From: Fusobacteria bacterium ZRK30
GTDB lineage: Bacteria > Fusobacteriota > Fusobacteriia > Fusobacteriales > Fusobacteriaceae
Direction of reading: 5' to 3'
Assembly: GCA_024628785.1 (NCBI GenBank)
Contig: CP102405.1
Location: forward strand, 868,001-932,000
Length of the DNA: 64,000 nucleotides
Below are positions 4,615-12,895 of this stretch, piece by piece (position 1 is the first letter of the stretch; the number at the start of each line of letters is the position of its first letter). Position numbers and translations under genes: made by a program. A model generated the notes under the pieces. That model made no database searches, was not told where the DNA came from, and saw only the letters and a list, made by a program, of their open reading frames with translations.

Positions 4615-5115
4615 ATGAAGAAGATAATGTTAATTTTAGCTATAACAGGAGTATTGATAAGCTGTTCTAGCAAAGATGAGACTGTAAAAAAAGAAACAAC
4701 AGTTGAAGTGGTGGCACCTCAAGAAGAGGTTGTTGCTCCGGTAGAGACAACAGAAGTAGAAGCTACTGAAGTAGTTACAGTAGAGGTAGAAAAACCAGCT
4801 TTAACCGATGAGGACTATAAGTCGGTATCGGAACCGGCAAAAAAAACGGTGAAAAAGCCAGTGAAACAAACTAAACCTGCTCCTAAACCTGTAGAGAAAG
4901 AAGAGACAGCACCAGTAGAAGCAGTTATGGAAACTTCTGTAGATGACACTGTAGATTCAGATGTGGACAAGCAGATAGCAAAGACAGAAACTGAGACTAA
5001 AGCTGTAGAAGTAGAAACTCCAGTTGAAGAAAGTAGCAGCAATAAAACTCTTTTTGGAATTTTAGGAGCTATATTAGTAGCAGCAGCAGCAGTATTTGTA
5101 TTTAAAAAGAAATAA
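4615..5115 (+). CDS. Val/Glu/Pro/Lys-rich lipoprotein with a C-terminal membrane anchor
   Basis: A 166-residue protein of unknown function. It starts with a lipoprotein signal peptide (lipobox LISC, lipidated Cys17). A low-complexity central region of Glu, Val, Thr, Pro and Lys follows, including a KKTVKKPVKQTKPAPKPV segment at about residues 78-95. The C terminus has a hydrophobic helix (LFGILGAILVAAAAVFVF) and a final KKK. It can therefore be anchored at both ends, with a disordered spacer between, resembling a periplasm-spanning tether or a protein with a sorting-type tail. The ATG at 4615 is chosen because TAGGAGG precedes it; an in-frame ATG at 4579 overlaps the yajC stop and lacks a ribosome site. 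Probably co-transcribed with yajC. Confidence 0.7.
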   Translation: MKKIMLILAITGVLISCSSKDETVKKETTVEVVAPQEEVVAPVETTEVEATEVVTVEVEKPALTDEDYKSVSEPAKKTVKKPVKQTKPAPKPVEKEETAPVEAVMETSVDDTVDSDVDKQIAKTETETKAVEVETPVEESSSNKTLFGILGAILVAAAAVFVFKKK

Positions 5116-5140
5116 AAAACCACCTTTTAGGTGGTTTTTT
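5114..5140 (+). terminator. Intrinsic terminator after the yajC unit
   Basis: AAAAAACCACC pairs perfectly with GGTGGTTTTTT across a 5-base loop, starting at the stop codon. Confidence 0.9.
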
Positions 5141-5243
5141 ATTTTAAAATGGACTTTTGTAATAAAAAATTCTGTTTGTAGCCCCGGAATTGTATAAAAT
5201 GTGAAAAAAATAACCACTTTACATTATAAAACGAACAATTTTC

Positions 5244-5272
5244 TTGACTTTTGAGTATTTTTGTCATATTCT
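5244..5272 (+). promoter_or_regulatory. Sigma-70 promoter of the glpQ-TRAP operon
   Basis: TTGACT and TATTCT are separated by 17 bases. This places transcription start near 5279 and leaves a leader of about 250 bases before glpQ. Confidence 0.7.
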
Positions 5273-5280
5273 TAATATAA

Positions 5281-5408
5281 GACAAAAATAAATACACCTA
5301 GAGTAAATAGAGTTGGGTTATTATAAATTGTATGGTTGCATACAATATTTTTATAATAACTTTTTTTGTTGTCTTTACGAAGAATTTACTCAAAAAATAC
5401 GAAGAATT
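5281..5408 (+). promoter_or_regulatory. Structured leader RNA with a terminator-like hairpin (candidate attenuator or riboswitch)
   Basis: Immediately after the predicted transcription start, a long hairpin (5317-5360) pairs GTTATTATAAA with TTATAATAAC and TTGTATG with CATACAA around a GTTG loop. Seven T follow (5361-5367). GAGTAAAT (5301-5308) and ATTTACTC (5384-5391) are perfectly complementary and flank this hairpin, so they can form an enclosing stem. The decamer ACGAAGAATT occurs twice, at 5377 and 5399, and GACGTT is repeated near 5431-5446. The whole 390-base gap between the yajC-unit terminator and glpQ holds no gene. I do not recognise a known riboswitch family. Confidence 0.55.
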
Positions 5409-5497
5409 CACATGAAAGTGTTAAAATATCAGACGTTAGAGACGTTTAGGAAGAAAAAGGTTAAAAAAAGTCAGATTATATTTATCTAGTGGAAAAG

Positions 5498-5512
5498 ACG
5501 ATATTTTATCGT
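5498..5512 (+). promoter_or_regulatory. Hairpin just before the glpQ ribosome site
   Basis: ACGATA-TTT-TATCGT is a perfect 6-bp inverted repeat ending 12 bases before the AAGGGGGG ribosome site of glpQ. It could influence access to that site. Confidence 0.45.
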
Positions 5513-5531
5513 AAATAAAAAAGGGGGGAAG

Positions 5532-6608
5532 ATGAAAAAAATAATTGGTTTATTGTTGATGTTAGCATTTGTAGGATGCACTAGCACAGGTGTTGTAGGG
5601 GATAAAAAAGCAGAAACAAAAAAGATCGTAGTAGCTCACAGAGGAGCCAGCGGTTATCTGCCAGAGCATAGTATGGCAGCAAAATCTATGGCATATGCAA
5701 TGGGAGCAGATTATATTGAACAGGATGTAGTTATGACTAAGGATAATGAATTGGTTGTATTGCATGATCACTATTTAGACAGAGTAACCAATGTAGCTGA
5801 AGTTTATCCATATAGAAAGAGGGAAGACGGCAGATATTATGCTATCGACTTTACATTAAAGGAAATAAAAGGTCTTAAGATGACTGAAGGGTTTAATGTT
5901 AAAGATGGAAAGACAGTAGCAGGGTTTCCTGAAAGGTTCCCGATTTGGAAATCAGATTTTAAAGTTCATACTTTAGCTGAGGAGATCGAATTAATCCAGG
6001 GATTAAATAAAAGTACAGGTAAAAACATTGGAATTTATCCAGAGATTAAGGCACCTTGGTTCCATAGACACGAAGGGAAAGACATCAGTGTAGCAGTATT
6101 GAAAGTTCTTAAAAAGTATGGATATACTGAAAAAAGTGATTTAGTTTATTTACAATGTTTTGACCCTAATGAAGTTATACGTTTGAAAAAAGAGTTATTA
6201 CCAGAATTTGGAATGGATATAAAATTAGTACAGTTAATAGCAGAGACCAGCTGGGATGAAACAATGGTATATGAAGATGGAAAAGCAGTTCCTTATAACT
6301 ACGACTGGATGTTTGAAGATGAAGGAATGAAAAAAATATCTCAATACGCTGACGGGATAGGGCCTTGGAAGCCAATGCTTGTAACAGATGAATCTACAAA
6401 GGATAATCTGGTTATTACAGATATGGTGAAAGATGCTCATAGATATGGAATGGAGGTACATCCTTATACATTCAGATTAGATGAGGGGAGAATACCTGCA
6501 TATGCATCGGATTTTGAAGATATGCTGGATATCTTTTATAATAAGGTTGGAGTAGACGGGGTATTTACAGATTTCCCTGATCGTGCTGTAAACTTTATAA
6601 ATAAGTAA
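5532..6608 (+). CDS. glpQ: Glycerophosphodiester phosphodiesterase lipoprotein (GlpQ-type)
   Basis: Hydrolyses glycerophosphodiesters (deacylated phospholipids) to sn-glycerol-3-phosphate and an alcohol. It is 358 residues long and exported: the signal peptide ends in the lipobox FVGC, lipidated Cys16. The TIM-barrel catalytic motifs are present: AHRGASGYLPEHS (catalytic His and Glu), IEQDVVMTKD (metal ligand region), VVLHD, and YPEIKAPWFH. The C terminus holds VHPYTFRLDE and DGVFTDFPD, also typical of GlpQ. A strong purine run precedes the ATG. It is first in an operon with a TRAP transporter and a HAD phosphatase, behind a long leader. No terminator separates it from dctP. The G3P product could feed the dehydrogenase-like triplet at 11462. 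Confidence 0.95.
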   Translation: MKKIIGLLLMLAFVGCTSTGVVGDKKAETKKIVVAHRGASGYLPEHSMAAKSMAYAMGADYIEQDVVMTKDNELVVLHDHYLDRVTNVAEVYPYRKREDGRYYAIDFTLKEIKGLKMTEGFNVKDGKTVAGFPERFPIWKSDFKVHTLAEEIELIQGLNKSTGKNIGIYPEIKAPWFHRHEGKDISVAVLKVLKKYGYTEKSDLVYLQCFDPNEVIRLKKELLPEFGMDIKLVQLIAETSWDETMVYEDGKAVPYNYDWMFEDEGMKKISQYADGIGPWKPMLVTDESTKDNLVITDMVKDAHRYGMEVHPYTFRLDEGRIPAYASDFEDMLDIFYNKVGVDGVFTDFPDRAVNFINK

Positions 6609-6675: not shown

Positions 6676-7695
6676 ATGAGGAAAGTTTTTAAGATGTTAA
6701 CATTGTTAATAGCAGCTACTATGTTATTTGTTAGTTGTGGGAAAAAAGAAGAAGCAGTAACAGAAAATGGTGAAAAAAAGGTAGTTATTAAATTAAGTAC
6801 TAAGTTTGTAGAAGACGAGCAGACAGCTAAGTCATTAAAAAGAGTAGCTGAAAAGATCAAAGAAAGATCTAATGGAAATGTTGAAATTCAAGTATACGCC
6901 GGTGGACAATTACCAATCGGTAAGGACAGTATGGAGCAAGTAGCCAATGGTGCAAACTGGATATCAGTAGACGGACTTAACTTCATTGGGGACTATGTAC
7001 CTGATTTTAACGCTATCAACGGACCTATGTTATATAAGAACTTTGATGAGTATTTAGCAATGACTCAATCAGATTTAGTAAAAAAATTAAAAGGTGAAGC
7101 AGATAAAAAAGGAATCAAAGTATTATCTTTAGATTACTTATTTGGATTCAGAAGTATGTTAACTGATAAAGTAGTAAAAACTCCTGCAGATCTTAAAGGG
7201 TTAAAAATAAGAGTACCAAACAGTCAATTATATATGTATACATTAGAGGCAATGGGAGCTAATCCTACTCCATTACCATTTACAGAGGTATACAGTGGAA
7301 TTCAACAAGGAGTAGTAGATGGTTTAGAAGGTTCTCTTATGACTATCTATGGAACTAAAATATATGAAGTTAGAAAAAATGTTTCTTTAACTAATCATTT
7401 ATTAGGTGTATCAGCAGTATCTATCTCTAAAACAGTATGGGAAGGATTATCTGAAAACCAAAGAACTATTATCCAAGAGGAATTTGATGCAGGAGCTAAA
7501 TATAACAATGACGTTACTGTTGAATTACAAAAAGAATACAAAGTTAAGTTAGAAGAATTAGGAGTTAAATTCAATGAGGTAGACCTACCTTCATTCAATG
7601 TAGAAACTGCTAAAGTATTCTCTAAGTTCCCTAAGTGGACTCCTGGAATCTACGAAGAAATTGAAAAAGAATTAAAAGTAATTAGAGCTAAATAA
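6676..7695 (+). CDS. dctP: TRAP transporter substrate-binding protein (DctP family)
   Basis: Solute receptor of a tripartite ATP-independent periplasmic transporter, 339 residues. It has a lipoprotein signal (FVSC, Cys21), so it is tethered rather than free. The fold is recognised from KLSTKFVEDEQTAKSLKRVA, the GGQLPIGKDSMEQVANGA segment, and LKGLKIRVPNSQ. The Arg in that last motif normally contacts the substrate carboxylate. PTPLPFTEVYSGIQQGVVDGLEG is the second family signature. The ligand cannot be read from sequence. The conserved Arg argues for an organic acid, yet the operon partners GlpQ and a HAD phosphatase suggest a phosphoester-derived compound. A stable intercistronic hairpin follows. 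Confidence 0.95.
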   Translation: MRKVFKMLTLLIAATMLFVSCGKKEEAVTENGEKKVVIKLSTKFVEDEQTAKSLKRVAEKIKERSNGNVEIQVYAGGQLPIGKDSMEQVANGANWISVDGLNFIGDYVPDFNAINGPMLYKNFDEYLAMTQSDLVKKLKGEADKKGIKVLSLDYLFGFRSMLTDKVVKTPADLKGLKIRVPNSQLYMYTLEAMGANPTPLPFTEVYSGIQQGVVDGLEGSLMTIYGTKIYEVRKNVSLTNHLLGVSAVSISKTVWEGLSENQRTIIQEEFDAGAKYNNDVTVELQKEYKVKLEELGVKFNEVDLPSFNVETAKVFSKFPKWTPGIYEEIEKELKVIRAK

Positions 7696-7782: not shown

Positions 7783-7819
7783 CTTTATACATTAAAGATA
7801 ACTGAATATGGGGTGGAAT

Positions 7820-8302
7820 ATGAAAAATTTCTTTAGAAATATAGAAGTAATTCTGGGGAGTATAACGATAAGTGTAACAGTATTATCTGTAATAACCAAT
7901 GTTATTTTAAGATATGGTTTTGGAATTCAATTCGCTTGGATTGAAGAGGTATCGGTAGGATGTTTCATATGGACTGTATTTTTAGGAGCTACAGCAGCTT
8001 ATAAAGACAAAGCATTGATAGGGGTAGAAGTTTTAACACAGGCACTACCATATAAAGGAAGAAGGTTTTTAGAATTAATAATATATAGTTTCTTATTTGT
8101 TCTAACTGCAACCCTCTTTTATTTGAGTTACAACTATACAGTGGGGTCGGATAAGATTACTTCAGCATTAGAAGTATCCTATGTATATATAAACTCATCT
8201 ATAGTAGTTTCATTCGGATTGATGACCTTTTATTCATTGGAATTTTTGGTTAAGGATATAATCTTATTTATGGATGAACAAAGAAAAGTAGAAAAAAATT
8301 AA
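7820..8302 (+). CDS. dctQ: TRAP transporter small permease subunit (DctQ family)
   Basis: The small membrane subunit of the TRAP transporter, 160 residues with four predicted transmembrane helices (about residues 13-35, 45-66, 84-108, 122-146). The motif IEEVSVGCFIWTVFLGATAAYKDKALIGV is the family signature around the second helix. The ATG at 7820 is preferred over one 12 bases upstream because GGGGTGG lies just before it. It works with the receptor and large permease on either side; together they import solute with sodium ions. Confidence 0.92.
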   Translation: MKNFFRNIEVILGSITISVTVLSVITNVILRYGFGIQFAWIEEVSVGCFIWTVFLGATAAYKDKALIGVEVLTQALPYKGRRFLELIIYSFLFVLTATLFYLSYNYTVGSDKITSALEVSYVYINSSIVVSFGLMTFYSLEFLVKDIILFMDEQRKVEKN

Positions 8303-8326: not shown

Positions 8327-9613
8327 GTGGAAGGTTTTTATCCAATAATAATTTTATTTATATTGTTTTTCTTAAATATACCAATAGCCTTTGCATTAAT
8401 GGGTGCATCGATGTATTATTTTATCTTCGTAGATAATATTATGTCAATGAACATGATCATGCAAAGATTTGTAACCTCTATTGAGTCATTTCCATATTTA
8501 GCGGTACCGTTTTTTATAATGGTAGGATCGGTAATGAACTATTCTGGAATCAGTAATAGTTTGATGGCAATGGCAGAGGTATTAGCTGGTCATATGGCCG
8601 GAGGATTAGCTCAGGTAAATGTAGTTTTAAGTATGATGATGGGTGGTATTTCAGGGTCTGCCAATGCAGATGCTGCTATGCAGTCCAAAATATTAGTACC
8701 AGAGATGAGAAAAAGAGGGTTTAGTGCACCCTTTTCAGCAGCAGTAACGGCAGCTTCATCTTCTGTCAGTCCGGTAATACCACCGGGAACAAACTTGATT
8801 ATCTATGCATTGATAGCCAATGTATCTGTATCAAAGATGTTTTTGGCAGGATATACACCGGGAATATTGATGACATTGGCACTTATGATAACTGTTCATG
8901 TGATCTCTAAAAAAAGAGGATACCTGCCTTCGAGAGATAAGATTGCAAGTCCTAAAGAGATAGCTATTCAGTTTAAAGATTCTATCTGGGCATTACTCAT
9001 TCCGTTTGGAATTATATTAGGAATGCGTTTTGGACTCTTCACTCCTACAGAAGCAGGGGGAATGGCAGTATTATTTTGTGTAGTAATAGGAACCTTTGTA
9101 TATAAAAAATTAAAGTTAAGGCATATCCCGATTATCTTAAGGGATACAGTATATGGTACAGGATCGGTTATGTTTCTTATCATAGGAGCTAAAGTATTTG
9201 GTTACTATCTGACTTTAGAAAGAATACCTCAGACAATCACAACATTCCTGATGGACTTTACAGACAGTAAGTTTGTATTACTAATAATAATCAACTTGTT
9301 ATTATTATTTATCGGGATGTTTATAGAGGGTGGAGCAGCACTTATTATATTGGCACCATTATTAGTACCGGCAGTAACCAGTATGGGAATAGACCCTATT
9401 CACTTTGGGGTGATCCTGATAGTTAATATTATGATCGGTGGAATAACTCCTCCATTCGGATCTATGATGTTTACGACCTGTACCATAGTCGGCGTCAAAT
9501 TAGATGATTTCGTAAAAGAGATAATACCATTTATAGTGGCTCTGATGATAGTATTGATAGTTCTTACTTATTCAGCACCTGTAGCTATGTTTATACCTAA
9601 CTTACTGGGGTAG
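8327..9613 (+). CDS. dctM: TRAP transporter large permease subunit (DctM family)
   Basis: The transporting subunit of the TRAP system, 428 residues and largely membrane-embedded with about 12 helices. Family features include the N-terminal FFLNIPIAFALMGAS, the SGSANADAAMQSKILVPEM loop with sodium-site type residues, SPVIPPGTNLIIYA at about residue 148, FTPTEAGGMAVL, and GGITPPFGSMMFT near the C terminus. Translation starts at a GTG placed 7 bases after AGGAAGTGA; no better ATG exists. The gene follows dctQ by 24 bases and precedes the HAD phosphatase by 7, so the three are translated from one message. Confidence 0.95.
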   Translation: MEGFYPIIILFILFFLNIPIAFALMGASMYYFIFVDNIMSMNMIMQRFVTSIESFPYLAVPFFIMVGSVMNYSGISNSLMAMAEVLAGHMAGGLAQVNVVLSMMMGGISGSANADAAMQSKILVPEMRKRGFSAPFSAAVTAASSSVSPVIPPGTNLIIYALIANVSVSKMFLAGYTPGILMTLALMITVHVISKKRGYLPSRDKIASPKEIAIQFKDSIWALLIPFGIILGMRFGLFTPTEAGGMAVLFCVVIGTFVYKKLKLRHIPIILRDTVYGTGSVMFLIIGAKVFGYYLTLERIPQTITTFLMDFTDSKFVLLIIINLLLLFIGMFIEGGAALIILAPLLVPAVTSMGIDPIHFGVILIVNIMIGGITPPFGSMMFTTCTIVGVKLDDFVKEIIPFIVALMIVLIVLTYSAPVAMFIPNLLG

Positions 9614-9620
9614 ATGAATT

Positions 9621-10415
9621 ATGAGTGAATTAAAAAATAAAAAATGTTTTATATTTGATATGGACGGAACCATCTATTTAGGAGATCATTTTATAGATGG
9701 GGCTGTGGACCTCTTAAAACATATAGAAAAAATAGGAAAGAACTTTGTATTTTTAACCAATAATTCCTCCAAAAACAGCGGAGTTTATTGTGAAAAATTA
9801 AAGAAAATGGGATTTGAAGTAAAAGAGGATAAGATATTTACCTCAGGAGAAGCAACCAGGATCTATATAAATAAGTTTAAACCAGGAGCCAAAATTTATT
9901 TGCTGGGAAATGAATATTTAGAGGCAGAGTTTGAAGAGAATGGATTCATCCTAGTTAAAGACAGAAATTCCAATCCAGACTATGTGGTCTTAGGATTTGA
10001 TACTACTTTAACCTATGAAAAAATATGGACAGCTTGTGATTATATAAAGGATGGAGTGGAGTTTTTAGCTACCCATCCGGATTATGTGTGTCCTCTACCT
10101 ATGGGTAAGAGTATGCCTGATACAGGTGCTATGATAAAGATGTTTGAGGCAGCTGCAGGTGTATCTCCAAAGATAATAGGTAAACCAAATAAGCTGATAA
10201 TAGAGTCTATCTTAGATAAATATCAGCTGAAACCGGAAGATGTGGTTATGGTAGGAGACAGGTTGTATACAGATATGAAATTAGGAGAAAATGCCGGGAT
10301 AGATTCTATCTTGGTGCTTACAGGTGAGGCTACAGAGGAAGATGTGAAAACCTCTAATATCCTGCCCACCTATATATTTGAATCTGTAAAGACAATATAT
10401 ATAAATTTGAAATAA
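9621..10415 (+). CDS. HAD-superfamily subfamily IIA phosphatase (NagD/PGP-like)
   Basis: A 264-residue cytoplasmic phosphatase of the HAD IIA branch, which includes NagD, AraL, and p-nitrophenyl-, phosphoglycolate- and glycerol-phosphate phosphatases. Motif I is FDMDGTIYLGD (nucleophile Asp and acid/base Asp), motif II is FLTNNSSK, the motif III Lys lies in GKPNKLI, and motif IV is MVGDRLYTDM. The C2-type cap lies between II and III. It ends the glpQ-dctPQM operon and is followed by a terminator. Given its company it may dephosphorylate a compound derived from glycerophosphodiesters, but the substrate is an inference and the family is broad. Confidence 0.9.
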   Translation: MSELKNKKCFIFDMDGTIYLGDHFIDGAVDLLKHIEKIGKNFVFLTNNSSKNSGVYCEKLKKMGFEVKEDKIFTSGEATRIYINKFKPGAKIYLLGNEYLEAEFEENGFILVKDRNSNPDYVVLGFDTTLTYEKIWTACDYIKDGVEFLATHPDYVCPLPMGKSMPDTGAMIKMFEAAAGVSPKIIGKPNKLIIESILDKYQLKPEDVVMVGDRLYTDMKLGENAGIDSILVLTGEATEEDVKTSNILPTYIFESVKTIYINLK

Positions 10416-11332: not shown

Positions 11333-11368
11333 TACGGTATAAATTGAATAGAAGCTAGAGATGAAGAG

Positions 11369-11421
11369 AGCTGGACAAAACAGAGTATACGTATTCTGTT
11401 TTGTTCAGCTATTTTTGTTTT
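11369..11421 (+). terminator. Leader terminator / attenuator upstream of the GlpA-like gene
   Basis: AGCTGGACAAAACAGA pairs with TCTGTTTTGTTCAGCT (one wobble position) and is followed by ATTTTTGTTTT. It lies between the promoter at 11304-11332 and the first gene at 11462, so read-through must be controlled. In Bacillus subtilis the glpD leader has the same layout and is governed by the antiterminator GlpP; whether a GlpP homologue acts here is not shown. Confidence 0.75.
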
Positions 11422-11461: not shown

Positions 11462-12895
11462 ATGCAAGATATTTTAATAGTAGGGGCAGGAGTAATAGGG
11501 GGGTCTATAGCAAGGGAACTTTCGAAATATAGTCTGAATGTGGTGGTATTAGACAAGGAAACAGATGTAGCCAATGGAACAACTAAGGCGAATTCAGCCA
11601 TTGTACATGCAGGATACGATGCTACAGAGGGAACTTTGATGGCTAAATATAATGCCTTGGGAAATACAATGTTCGATAAATTAAGTGAGGAATTAGACTT
11701 TCCATTCAAAAGAATAGGATCATTGGTAGTTGCAAACAGTGAAGAGGAAAGAAAACATATAGATGAATTATTACAAAGGGGAATAGAAAATAAGATTCCA
11801 GGTGTAAGAATAATTGAAAAAGATGAATTAAAAAAAGTTGAACCAAAGATAAATGAAGATGCCGTTGCGGCACTATTAGCTCCTACAGGAGGAGTAGTAG
11901 GACCATGGGAGATGACTATAGCGCTTATGGAAAATGCTGTAGATAACGGTGTAAAATTAGACTTAAATACAGAGGTTTTGGATATAGAAAAAATAGAGGG
12001 CGGATACAGAGTAATCACAAACCAAAGAGATTATGAAACTAGATGTATCATAAATGCTTCTGGAGTATATGCAGATAAGATCCATGGAATGGTAGCAGAG
12101 GAGACATTTAAAATAACTCCTAGAAGGGGACAATATTTCGTCTTAGATAAAACACAGGGAGAATTAGTTAACCATGTTATATTCCAATGTCCAACTAAAT
12201 TAGGAAAGGGTGTTTTGGTAACTCCTACAGTTCATGGAAATGTATTGGCAGGACCAGATGCTGAGGATCTAAGTGACAGAGCTAACTTAGCGACTACAGC
12301 AGACAGATTGGATTTCGTAAGGGAGCATGCACTGAAATCTATAAAGGAGTTAAACTTCAGAGAGGGGATTAGAAACTTTGCAGGACTCAGAGCACAGCCG
12401 AGCACAAACGACTTTATAATTGAAGAGGTAGAGGGAGCTAAAGGATTTATAGATGTAGCAGGAATAAAATCACCGGGATTATCATCTGCTCCAGCTATTG
12501 CAGTAGACGTGGTAGAGATAGCTAAAAAGATCTTAGGAGATGTAGCATTAAACAAGGAATTCAAGCCTAACAGAAAAAAACATTACGAATTTATAACTGA
12601 AACTGCTGAAAAAAAAGCAGAATTAATAAACCAGGACAGAAGATATGGAAACATGATATGCAGATGTGAAAATATCACGGAGGGTGAAATAGTAGATTCT
12701 ATCCATAGAAATGTAGGAGCAACTACAGTAGATGGTGTGAAAAAAAGGTGCAGACCGGGAATGGGAAGATGCCAGGGTGGATTCTGCGGACCTAGAATAC
12801 AAGAGATCTTAGCCCGTGAATTAGGAAAAAGCTTGGAAGAGATTGTATTAGATAAGGCAGATTCATACATACTGACTGGAGAAACTAAAAAATAA
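11462..12895 (+). CDS. glpA: GlpA-like FAD-dependent glycerol-3-phosphate dehydrogenase with BFD [2Fe-2S] domain
   Basis: A 477-residue flavoprotein of the GlpA / L-2-hydroxyglutarate oxidase family, expected to oxidise sn-glycerol-3-phosphate or a related alpha-hydroxy compound. The Rossmann motif ILIVGAGVIGGSIARELSK starts at residue 4, followed by the DAO-fold block ANSAIVHAGYDATEGTLMAKYN. Residues about 400-460 form a BFD-like [2Fe-2S] domain with Cys in CRCEN, KRC, GRC and GFC. That domain passes electrons to the next subunit. AGGAGG gives a clear start. It leads a three-gene unit (GlpA-like, FAD oxidoreductase, DUF1667) common in Clostridia and Fusobacteria. The substrate assignment rests on family and context. 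Confidence 0.88.
   Translation: MQDILIVGAGVIGGSIARELSKYSLNVVVLDKETDVANGTTKANSAIVHAGYDATEGTLMAKYNALGNTMFDKLSEELDFPFKRIGSLVVANSEEERKHIDELLQRGIENKIPGVRIIEKDELKKVEPKINEDAVAALLAPTGGVVGPWEMTIALMENAVDNGVKLDLNTEVLDIEKIEGGYRVITNQRDYETRCIINASGVYADKIHGMVAEETFKITPRRGQYFVLDKTQGELVNHVIFQCPTKLGKGVLVTPTVHGNVLAGPDAEDLSDRANLATTADRLDFVREHALKSIKELNFREGIRNFAGLRAQPSTNDFIIEEVEGAKGFIDVAGIKSPGLSSAPAIAVDVVEIAKKILGDVALNKEFKPNRKKHYEFITETAEKKAELINQDRRYGNMICRCENITEGEIVDSIHRNVGATTVDGVKKRCRPGMGRCQGGFCGPRIQEILARELGKSLEEIVLDKADSYILTGETKK

What the first reader, a model, noticed from the sequence alone, without database searches (positions are those of the whole stretch)
5244..5531. Long structured leader of the glpQ-TRAP operon with a terminator-like hairpin and an enclosing alternative stem
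A consensus promoter is followed by a roughly 250-base leader. A long hairpin (5317-5360) ends in seven T, like a terminator. GAGTAAAT (5301) and ATTTACTC (5384), one on each side, are perfectly complementary and could form a closing stem once transcription passes the T run. Two ACGAAGAATT direct repeats and a hairpin next to the ribosome site add further structure. This is the architecture of an attenuator or riboswitch, and I cannot match it to a known class.
Basis: partly seen in the sequence, partly recalled or inferred. Interest (0 to 1): 0.65.

Follow-up and report, generated by a model that had tools for sequence, protein, structure and literature searches.

The report
GlpP-controlled antiterminator leader before glpQ
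The RNA leader in front of this glycerophosphodiester-uptake operon looks like an on/off switch worked by the known protein GlpP, which senses glycerol-3-phosphate; the same kind of switch sits in front of the cell's other glycerol-phosphate operons and in Bacillus.

Summary
A promoter (5244-5272) is followed by a leader of about 250 bases with a terminator hairpin (5316-5361, seven T) and an enclosing complement.

It is very likely the leader of a GlpP-type antitermination system, as studied for glpD, glpFK and glpTQ of Bacillus subtilis. The genome encodes one GlpP. The box AGAGTAAATAGAG (5300-5312) fits a motif, RGAG-N3-5-RGAG, just 5' of a terminator. This motif also precedes the genome's G3P-oxidase operon (window 11353-11416) and glpF, glp genes in eleven other genera of the order, and glpF, glpD and glpT of Bacillus spizizenii. 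The box is the loop of a small hairpin whose 3' strand is also the terminator's 5' arm, so the two exclude each other. This hairpin covaries (34 non-redundant fusobacterial leaders: mean score 10.7, against 6.25 +/- 0.58 with flanks swapped; 0 of 5000 as high). The operon's TRAP binding protein resembles a solved Fusobacterium protein holding glycerol phosphate.

So it is an attenuator, not a riboswitch: a new member of a known kind, with no report in Fusobacteriota found in my searches. The repeats are not conserved. The enclosing stem is mostly conserved in the genus and unexplained. Nothing was tested at the bench.

The parts
5231..5240 (+). ACGAACAATT just upstream of -35; GAACAATT kept in all seven genus members; role unknown
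5244..5272 (+). sigma-70-type promoter TTGACT-17-TATTCT
5291..5299 (+). 5' strand of the antiterminator hairpin (AAUA, bulged C, ACCU)
5300..5312 (+). GlpP box AGAGUAAAUAGAG (RGAG-N5-RGAG), loop of the antiterminator hairpin
5315..5322 (+). 3' strand of the antiterminator hairpin (GGGU + UAUU), shared with the terminator 5' arm
5316..5361 (+). intrinsic terminator stem-loop
5361..5367 (+). U run of the terminator
5301..5308 (+). GAGUAAAU, 5' half of the enclosing stem (overlaps the box)
5384..5391 (+). AUUUACUC, 3' half of the enclosing stem
5532..6608 (+). glpQ-type glycerophosphodiester phosphodiesterase (lipoprotein-like start), first gene behind the leader
6676..7695 (+). TRAP solute-binding protein, best PDB match 4pfb (FN1258, glycerol phosphate bound)
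7808..8302 (+). TRAP small permease
8327..9613 (+). TRAP large permease
9621..10415 (+). HAD-IIA phosphatase at the end of the gene run
11353..11372 (+). antiterminator hairpin of the second GlpP-type leader: AGCU[AGAGAUGAAGAG]AGCU
11369..11416 (+). terminator and U run of the second leader
11462..12895 (+). glycerol-3-phosphate oxidase type (GlpA-like), behind the second leader

Best explanation
The leader is a GlpP-dependent transcription antitermination switch. RNA polymerase starts near 5279. The nascent RNA can first fold a weak hairpin (5291-5299 with 5315-5322) that shows the loop AGAGUAAAUAGAG. Without glycerol-3-phosphate (G3P) the terminator (5316-5361 plus T run) takes over, because it uses the same bases, and transcription stops near 5367. 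When G3P is present, GlpP with bound G3P holds the loop hairpin, the terminator cannot form, and glpQ, the TRAP transporter and the phosphatase gene are expressed. GlpQ releases G3P from glycerophosphodiesters outside the cell, TRAP imports it, and G3P itself is the signal. The same GlpP is predicted to switch the glpF leader and the G3P-oxidase leader at 11353. Shown here: the sequence elements, the exclusion of the two hairpins, their covariation, GlpP in the genome, and the shared gene context. Inferred: binding by GlpP, the G3P signal, and premature termination.
For: One GlpP gene, PF04309 1.2e-64. The same box plus terminator lies before glpQ, before the G3P-oxidase operon and before glpF behind glpP. 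A leader with the box is found in the fetched glp stretches of 32 of 51 GlpP-positive genomes (compiled by hand). Swapping flanks: 34 non-redundant fusobacterial leaders, mean helix score 10.71 against 6.25 (sd 0.58), 0 of 5000 as high; 31 of 34 have 4 or more pairs; 29 of 34 overlap the terminator 5' arm by 3 or more bases. Example: in G006 AGCU/AGCU becomes GGCU/AGCC and the terminator 3' arm changes too. B. subtilis-group glpF and glpD leaders carry the same kind of box and exclusive hairpins. A model of Bacilli leaders finds glpF, glpD and, not in its training set, glpT as its top three hits in B. spizizenii. 30 of 32 genomes with the TRAP binding protein encode GlpP. The closest solved relative is FN1258 with glycerol phosphate. 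In one genus glpP sits directly before TRAP, phosphatase and G3P-oxidase genes, in another directly before the TRAP gene with the leader between them.
Against: The Bacilli-trained model does not reach the fusobacterial leaders: the stems differ in sequence, so the link rests on loop, architecture and context. The motif alone is not specific: 9 pattern matches in the genome against 7 for the reversed pattern. For 13 of 51 GlpP-positive genomes I recognised no glp leader in what I fetched. Four GlpP-negative assemblies have leaders (G003, G004, G051, G055); all are from genera with GlpP and may be incomplete. The window's own antiterminator has only 4 pairs plus 4 past a bulge (-3.8 kcal/mol, z -0.1). 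Sequences are related and the motif was settled after seeing examples, so the permutation count is not a probability. No experiment.
Confidence: 0.93

Rival explanations
1. A metabolite riboswitch of an undescribed class that binds G3P or a related ligand directly, without a protein.
For: Conserved leader with mutually exclusive structures before a metabolic operon.
Against: No Rfam match at gathering score; below it, nothing credible inside the leader. The only conserved unpaired part is about 13 bases, and the hairpin around it varies freely. The motif follows glp genes and the glpP locus in two phyla.
Confidence: 0.03
2. A plain attenuator or partial terminator with fixed read-through, the box being kept for another reason.
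For: The terminator is AU-rich and could be leaky; the antiterminator of this copy is weak.
Against: Covariation of the 5' flank with the terminator 5' arm across genera, and the same kind of box at three loci of one genome.
Confidence: 0.03
3. A leader-peptide attenuator (ribosome stalling).
For: A short ATG frame exists from about 5333 (by eye).
Against: The T run within that frame differs by one or two bases in 2 of 7 species, breaking the frame. No ribosome site was seen by eye, and the box lies outside the frame.
Confidence: 0.01

Closest known systems
Bacillus subtilis glpD / glpFK / glpTQ leaders controlled by GlpP
   Same: Promoter, RGAG-N4-5-RGAG box, directly following terminator, hairpin that excludes it, glycerol/G3P genes, GlpP in the genome (B. 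subtilis group and B. spizizenii; mechanism from passages of PMC9604022 and PMC7430163)
   Different: AU-rich stem of unrelated sequence, AGAG words instead of mostly GGAG, leader of about 250 bases, an extra enclosing stem, a TRAP transporter instead of GlpT, Fusobacteriota instead of Bacillota
LicT/SacY (BglG family) antiterminator RNAs
   Same: Protein-held hairpin that overlaps the 5' arm of a terminator
   Different: Different protein family and RNA (recalled; that LicT contacts two bulges is in a PMC7430163 passage); here a hairpin loop with two RGAG words
HutP leader of the hut operon
   Same: Ligand-activated protein, repeated short NAG-type words
   [quoted passage not shown] different protein

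Membership tests
GlpP-dependent antitermination leader | GlpP (PF04309) encoded in the same genome | tested here: met
   E 1.2e-64, one copy; followed by glpF
GlpP-dependent antitermination leader | Intrinsic terminator between promoter and first gene | tested here: met
   (sequence and folding only; termination itself not measured)
GlpP-dependent antitermination leader | Downstream genes handle glycerol, G3P or glycerophosphodiesters | tested here: met
GlpP-dependent antitermination leader | Box and exclusive hairpin shared with the Bacillus glp leaders | tested here: met
GlpP-dependent antitermination leader | Whole element found by a covariance model of Bacilli leaders (close sequence kinship; not required for the mechanism) | tested here: not met
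   the best window match, E 0.17, is an unrelated terminator at 5110-5137
GlpP-dependent antitermination leader | GlpP-G3P binds the leader RNA and raises read-through | not testable with these tools
   needs purified protein or a strain
Known riboswitch class | Match to an Rfam family at gathering score | tested here: not met
   0 matches in 64 kb
Leader-peptide attenuator | Conserved short reading frame across the hairpin | tested here: not met
   T-run length differs in G004 and G006, shifting the frame

The most novel reading that the evidence does not exclude
GlpP works across phyla through one defined RNA element, not held in Rfam: a small hairpin with loop RGAG-N3-5-RGAG, one RGAG perhaps per GlpP subunit, whose stem is free to vary because it must copy the 5' arm of whichever terminator it replaces. 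In this genus the glpQ leader carries a third state: once polymerase has passed, AUUUACUC pairs with the box itself, pulling it out of the loop and freeing GlpP or protecting the read-through message.
Probability: 0.3. Interest if true: 0.6.

Novelty: new member of a known kind. Interest (0 to 1): 0.45.

Why it matters
It turns an unassigned leader into a testable G3P-sensing switch, extends GlpP antitermination to Fusobacteriota, and gives a structural description of the GlpP target with covariation, from which an RNA family could be built. It also ties a TRAP transporter to G3P uptake through its regulator, and predicts a regulon (glpQ-TRAP, glpF, G3P oxidase) in Fusobacterium-like bacteria.

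Tried and rejected
Rfam at gathering score (0 matches) and at E up to 10 (39 weak hits, nearly all to the 5110-5145 terminator of the preceding gene). MAFFT of three leader classes together misaligned the stems, so scoring was done per sequence. The Bacilli covariance model did not find the fusobacterial leaders. A cross-phylum alignment of the hairpin alone was too ragged in register for a model; none was built. The two ACGAAGAATT repeats were dropped as not conserved. Leader peptide dropped. Pattern-only searches of the genome were not specific; six other hits that I examined are not before recognisable glp genes. The first version of the permutation chose among overlapping loops by helix score and kept non-glp hits; the rerun took the first loop by position and, for Fusobacteriota, glp context only (112 of 137 hits, 34 after removing redundancy); neither gave a permutation as high as observed. 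In one search one of the 34 leaders (L084) scored zero because the first loop by position was used.

Paper searches. (GlpP with antiterminator, or 'glycerol-3-phosphate responsive antiterminator', together with Fusobacteri-) found 0 papers; that is the only basis for 'no report found'. Of PMC9604022, PMC7430163, PMC3997798 and PMC11668362 I saw passages only. The original GlpP papers (Glatz 1996, 1998; Holmberg; Darbon) were seen only as reference entries, so whether the antiterminator hairpin was already drawn there I cannot say.

Full report
What is there. Window 5244-5272 holds a promoter of the sigma-70 type and the gene glpQ starts at 5532. Between them the leader has a box AGAGTAAATAGAG at 5300-5312, a terminator stem-loop at 5316-5361 and seven T at 5361-5367. 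The stretch 5280-5370 folds at -19.5 kcal/mol, z -3.1. The complement GAGTAAAT / ATTTACTC is real and unlikely by chance (0.16% of shuffles). The ACGAAGAATT repeats are real but found in only 1 of 6 relatives.

Conservation. A DNA search of 100 relatives found long matches in seven genus members, the window's own genome included. Promoter, box and terminator are the most conserved parts. In four of the seven species a 241-247-residue glycerophosphodiesterase gene of another type stands between leader and glpQ; the leader is kept whether or not this gene is there, so it is a unit of its own.

Same element elsewhere in the genome. A second leader of the same design, AGCU[AGAGAUGAAGAG]AGCU followed by a strong terminator (-31.2 kcal/mol, z -7.3), lies at 11353-11416 before a G3P-oxidase-type gene. 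A third, AAUCUU[AGAGACCGAGAG]AAGAUU plus terminator, lies between glpP and glpF. The genome's single GlpP matches PF04309 at 1.2e-64.

The switch. In these leaders the box is the loop of a hairpin whose 3' strand is also the 5' arm of the terminator, so the two exclude one another. This was tested on leaders chosen by loop and terminator only, in glp context, non-redundant at 82%: 34 fusobacterial leaders score 10.71 on average for their own 5' flank, 5.5 for a flank taken 17 bases further up, and 6.25 (sd 0.58) for flanks swapped between leaders, 0 of 5000 as high; 33 of 34 have a helix of three or more pairs, 31 of 34 one of at least four, and 29 of 34 overlap the terminator arm by three or more bases. 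For 46 Bacilli leaders (not filtered by gene context) the means are 9.54, 3.92 and 7.67 (sd 0.41), 0 of 5000. Loop motif and thresholds were settled after looking at examples, and sequences are related, so these counts are support, not probabilities. A clear case: in G006 the G3P-oxidase leader changes AGCU/AGCU to GGCU/AGCC, and the terminator 3' arm follows. In the glpQ leaders of the seven species all four core pairs are kept, with exchanges between G-U and A-U. The nascent RNA 5290-5326 folds this hairpin alone at only -3.8 kcal/mol, as expected of a structure that needs a protein.

Link to the studied system. GlpP of B. subtilis acts on glpD, glpT and glpFK, whose promoters share a GlpP site and a terminator in the untranslated region (PMC9604022, passages), and G3P-bound GlpP binds the antiterminator (PMC7430163, passage). 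B. spizizenii and its relatives carry the same kind of box at glpF and glpD. In 2.57 Mb (80 Bacilli loci, both strands) the full descriptor gave 71 hits on the strand of glpP and 2 on the other. A covariance model from 41 Bacilli leaders (two of 43 candidates inside genes were dropped) has as its three best hits in the B. spizizenii genome glpF, glpD and glpT, the last not in the training set. Against this, the model does not find the fusobacterial leaders: the stems share no sequence.

Spread in Fusobacteriota. GlpP exceeds the family cut-off in 51 of 100 genomes, own included. The strict scanner found a glp leader in fetched stretches of 32 of these 51, in the window's genus and eleven others (compiled by hand); one more, G021, appears; five more (G030, G041, G054, G056, G058) show the hairpin with small loop variants (by eye). 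In the other 13 I recognised none before a glp gene (for G059 no stretch was fetched; in G079 two hits stand near glpP before other genes). Of 11 GlpP-negative genomes examined (and the genus loci), four have leaders (G003, G004, G051, G055; all from genera with GlpP, assemblies 62-94% complete and in many contigs) and seven have none that is convincing (one weak hit in G087). The TRAP binding protein occurs in 32 of 100 genomes, 30 of them with GlpP. In several genera the leader stands directly before the TRAP binding protein gene (L198-L201, L207, L211, L213, L215), and in one of them glpP is its neighbour (L079, L084). In another genus glpP is followed by TRAP, HAD phosphatase and G3P-oxidase genes in a row (L279, L327, gene identities by eye).

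Substrate. The window's TRAP binding protein best matches 4pfb in the PDB (E 1.8e-125), which is FN1258 of F. nucleatum with glycerol phosphate bound (PMC11668362, passages). Ligand, regulator and enzymes agree on G3P.

Enclosing stem. 51 of 56 pair cells form over seven species; one pair changes on both sides (T-A to A-T in G006) and G003 loses two pairs; column shuffles reach this in 75 of 500, and slid controls pair at 23-64%. It overlaps the box, so it could act after read-through. I noticed no counterpart in the other leaders but did not search for one systematically. Open.

Verdict. GlpP-type antitermination leader, confidence 0.93; new member of a known kind. The phylum is inferred from gene similarity (FN1258) and no call named the organism or its genus.

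Noticed in passing
window 5231-5240: GAACAATT upstream of the -35 box is kept in all seven genus members; it may be a DNA-binding site of a second regulator.
   Followed up: no
L005, L006, L007, L009: In 4 of 7 genus members a second glycerophosphodiesterase gene (241-247 aa) sits between leader and glpQ; in the window's species and two others it is missing.
   Followed up: partly
L276 (G079) 3424 and 6522, minus strand: Two strong box-plus-terminator-plus-hairpin hits near glpP, before a 516-residue and a 426-residue protein that are not obvious glp genes; possible further GlpP targets.
   Followed up: no
L100, L103, L105, L158 near 7900: In Paenibacillus and Cohnella a leader of this type stands before glpP itself, suggesting autoregulation.
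   Followed up: no
L130 3808, L143 3876, L147 5548: Leader of this type before a 700-706-residue protein in Paenibacillaceae, a candidate further GlpP target.
   Followed up: no
relatives of family f4: Nearly all genomes of one family of the same order lack GlpP; G079 is the only one over the cut-off.
   Followed up: no
window 5110-5145: Strong hairpin with T on both sides, a two-way terminator of the preceding gene; source of most weak Rfam hits.
   Followed up: no
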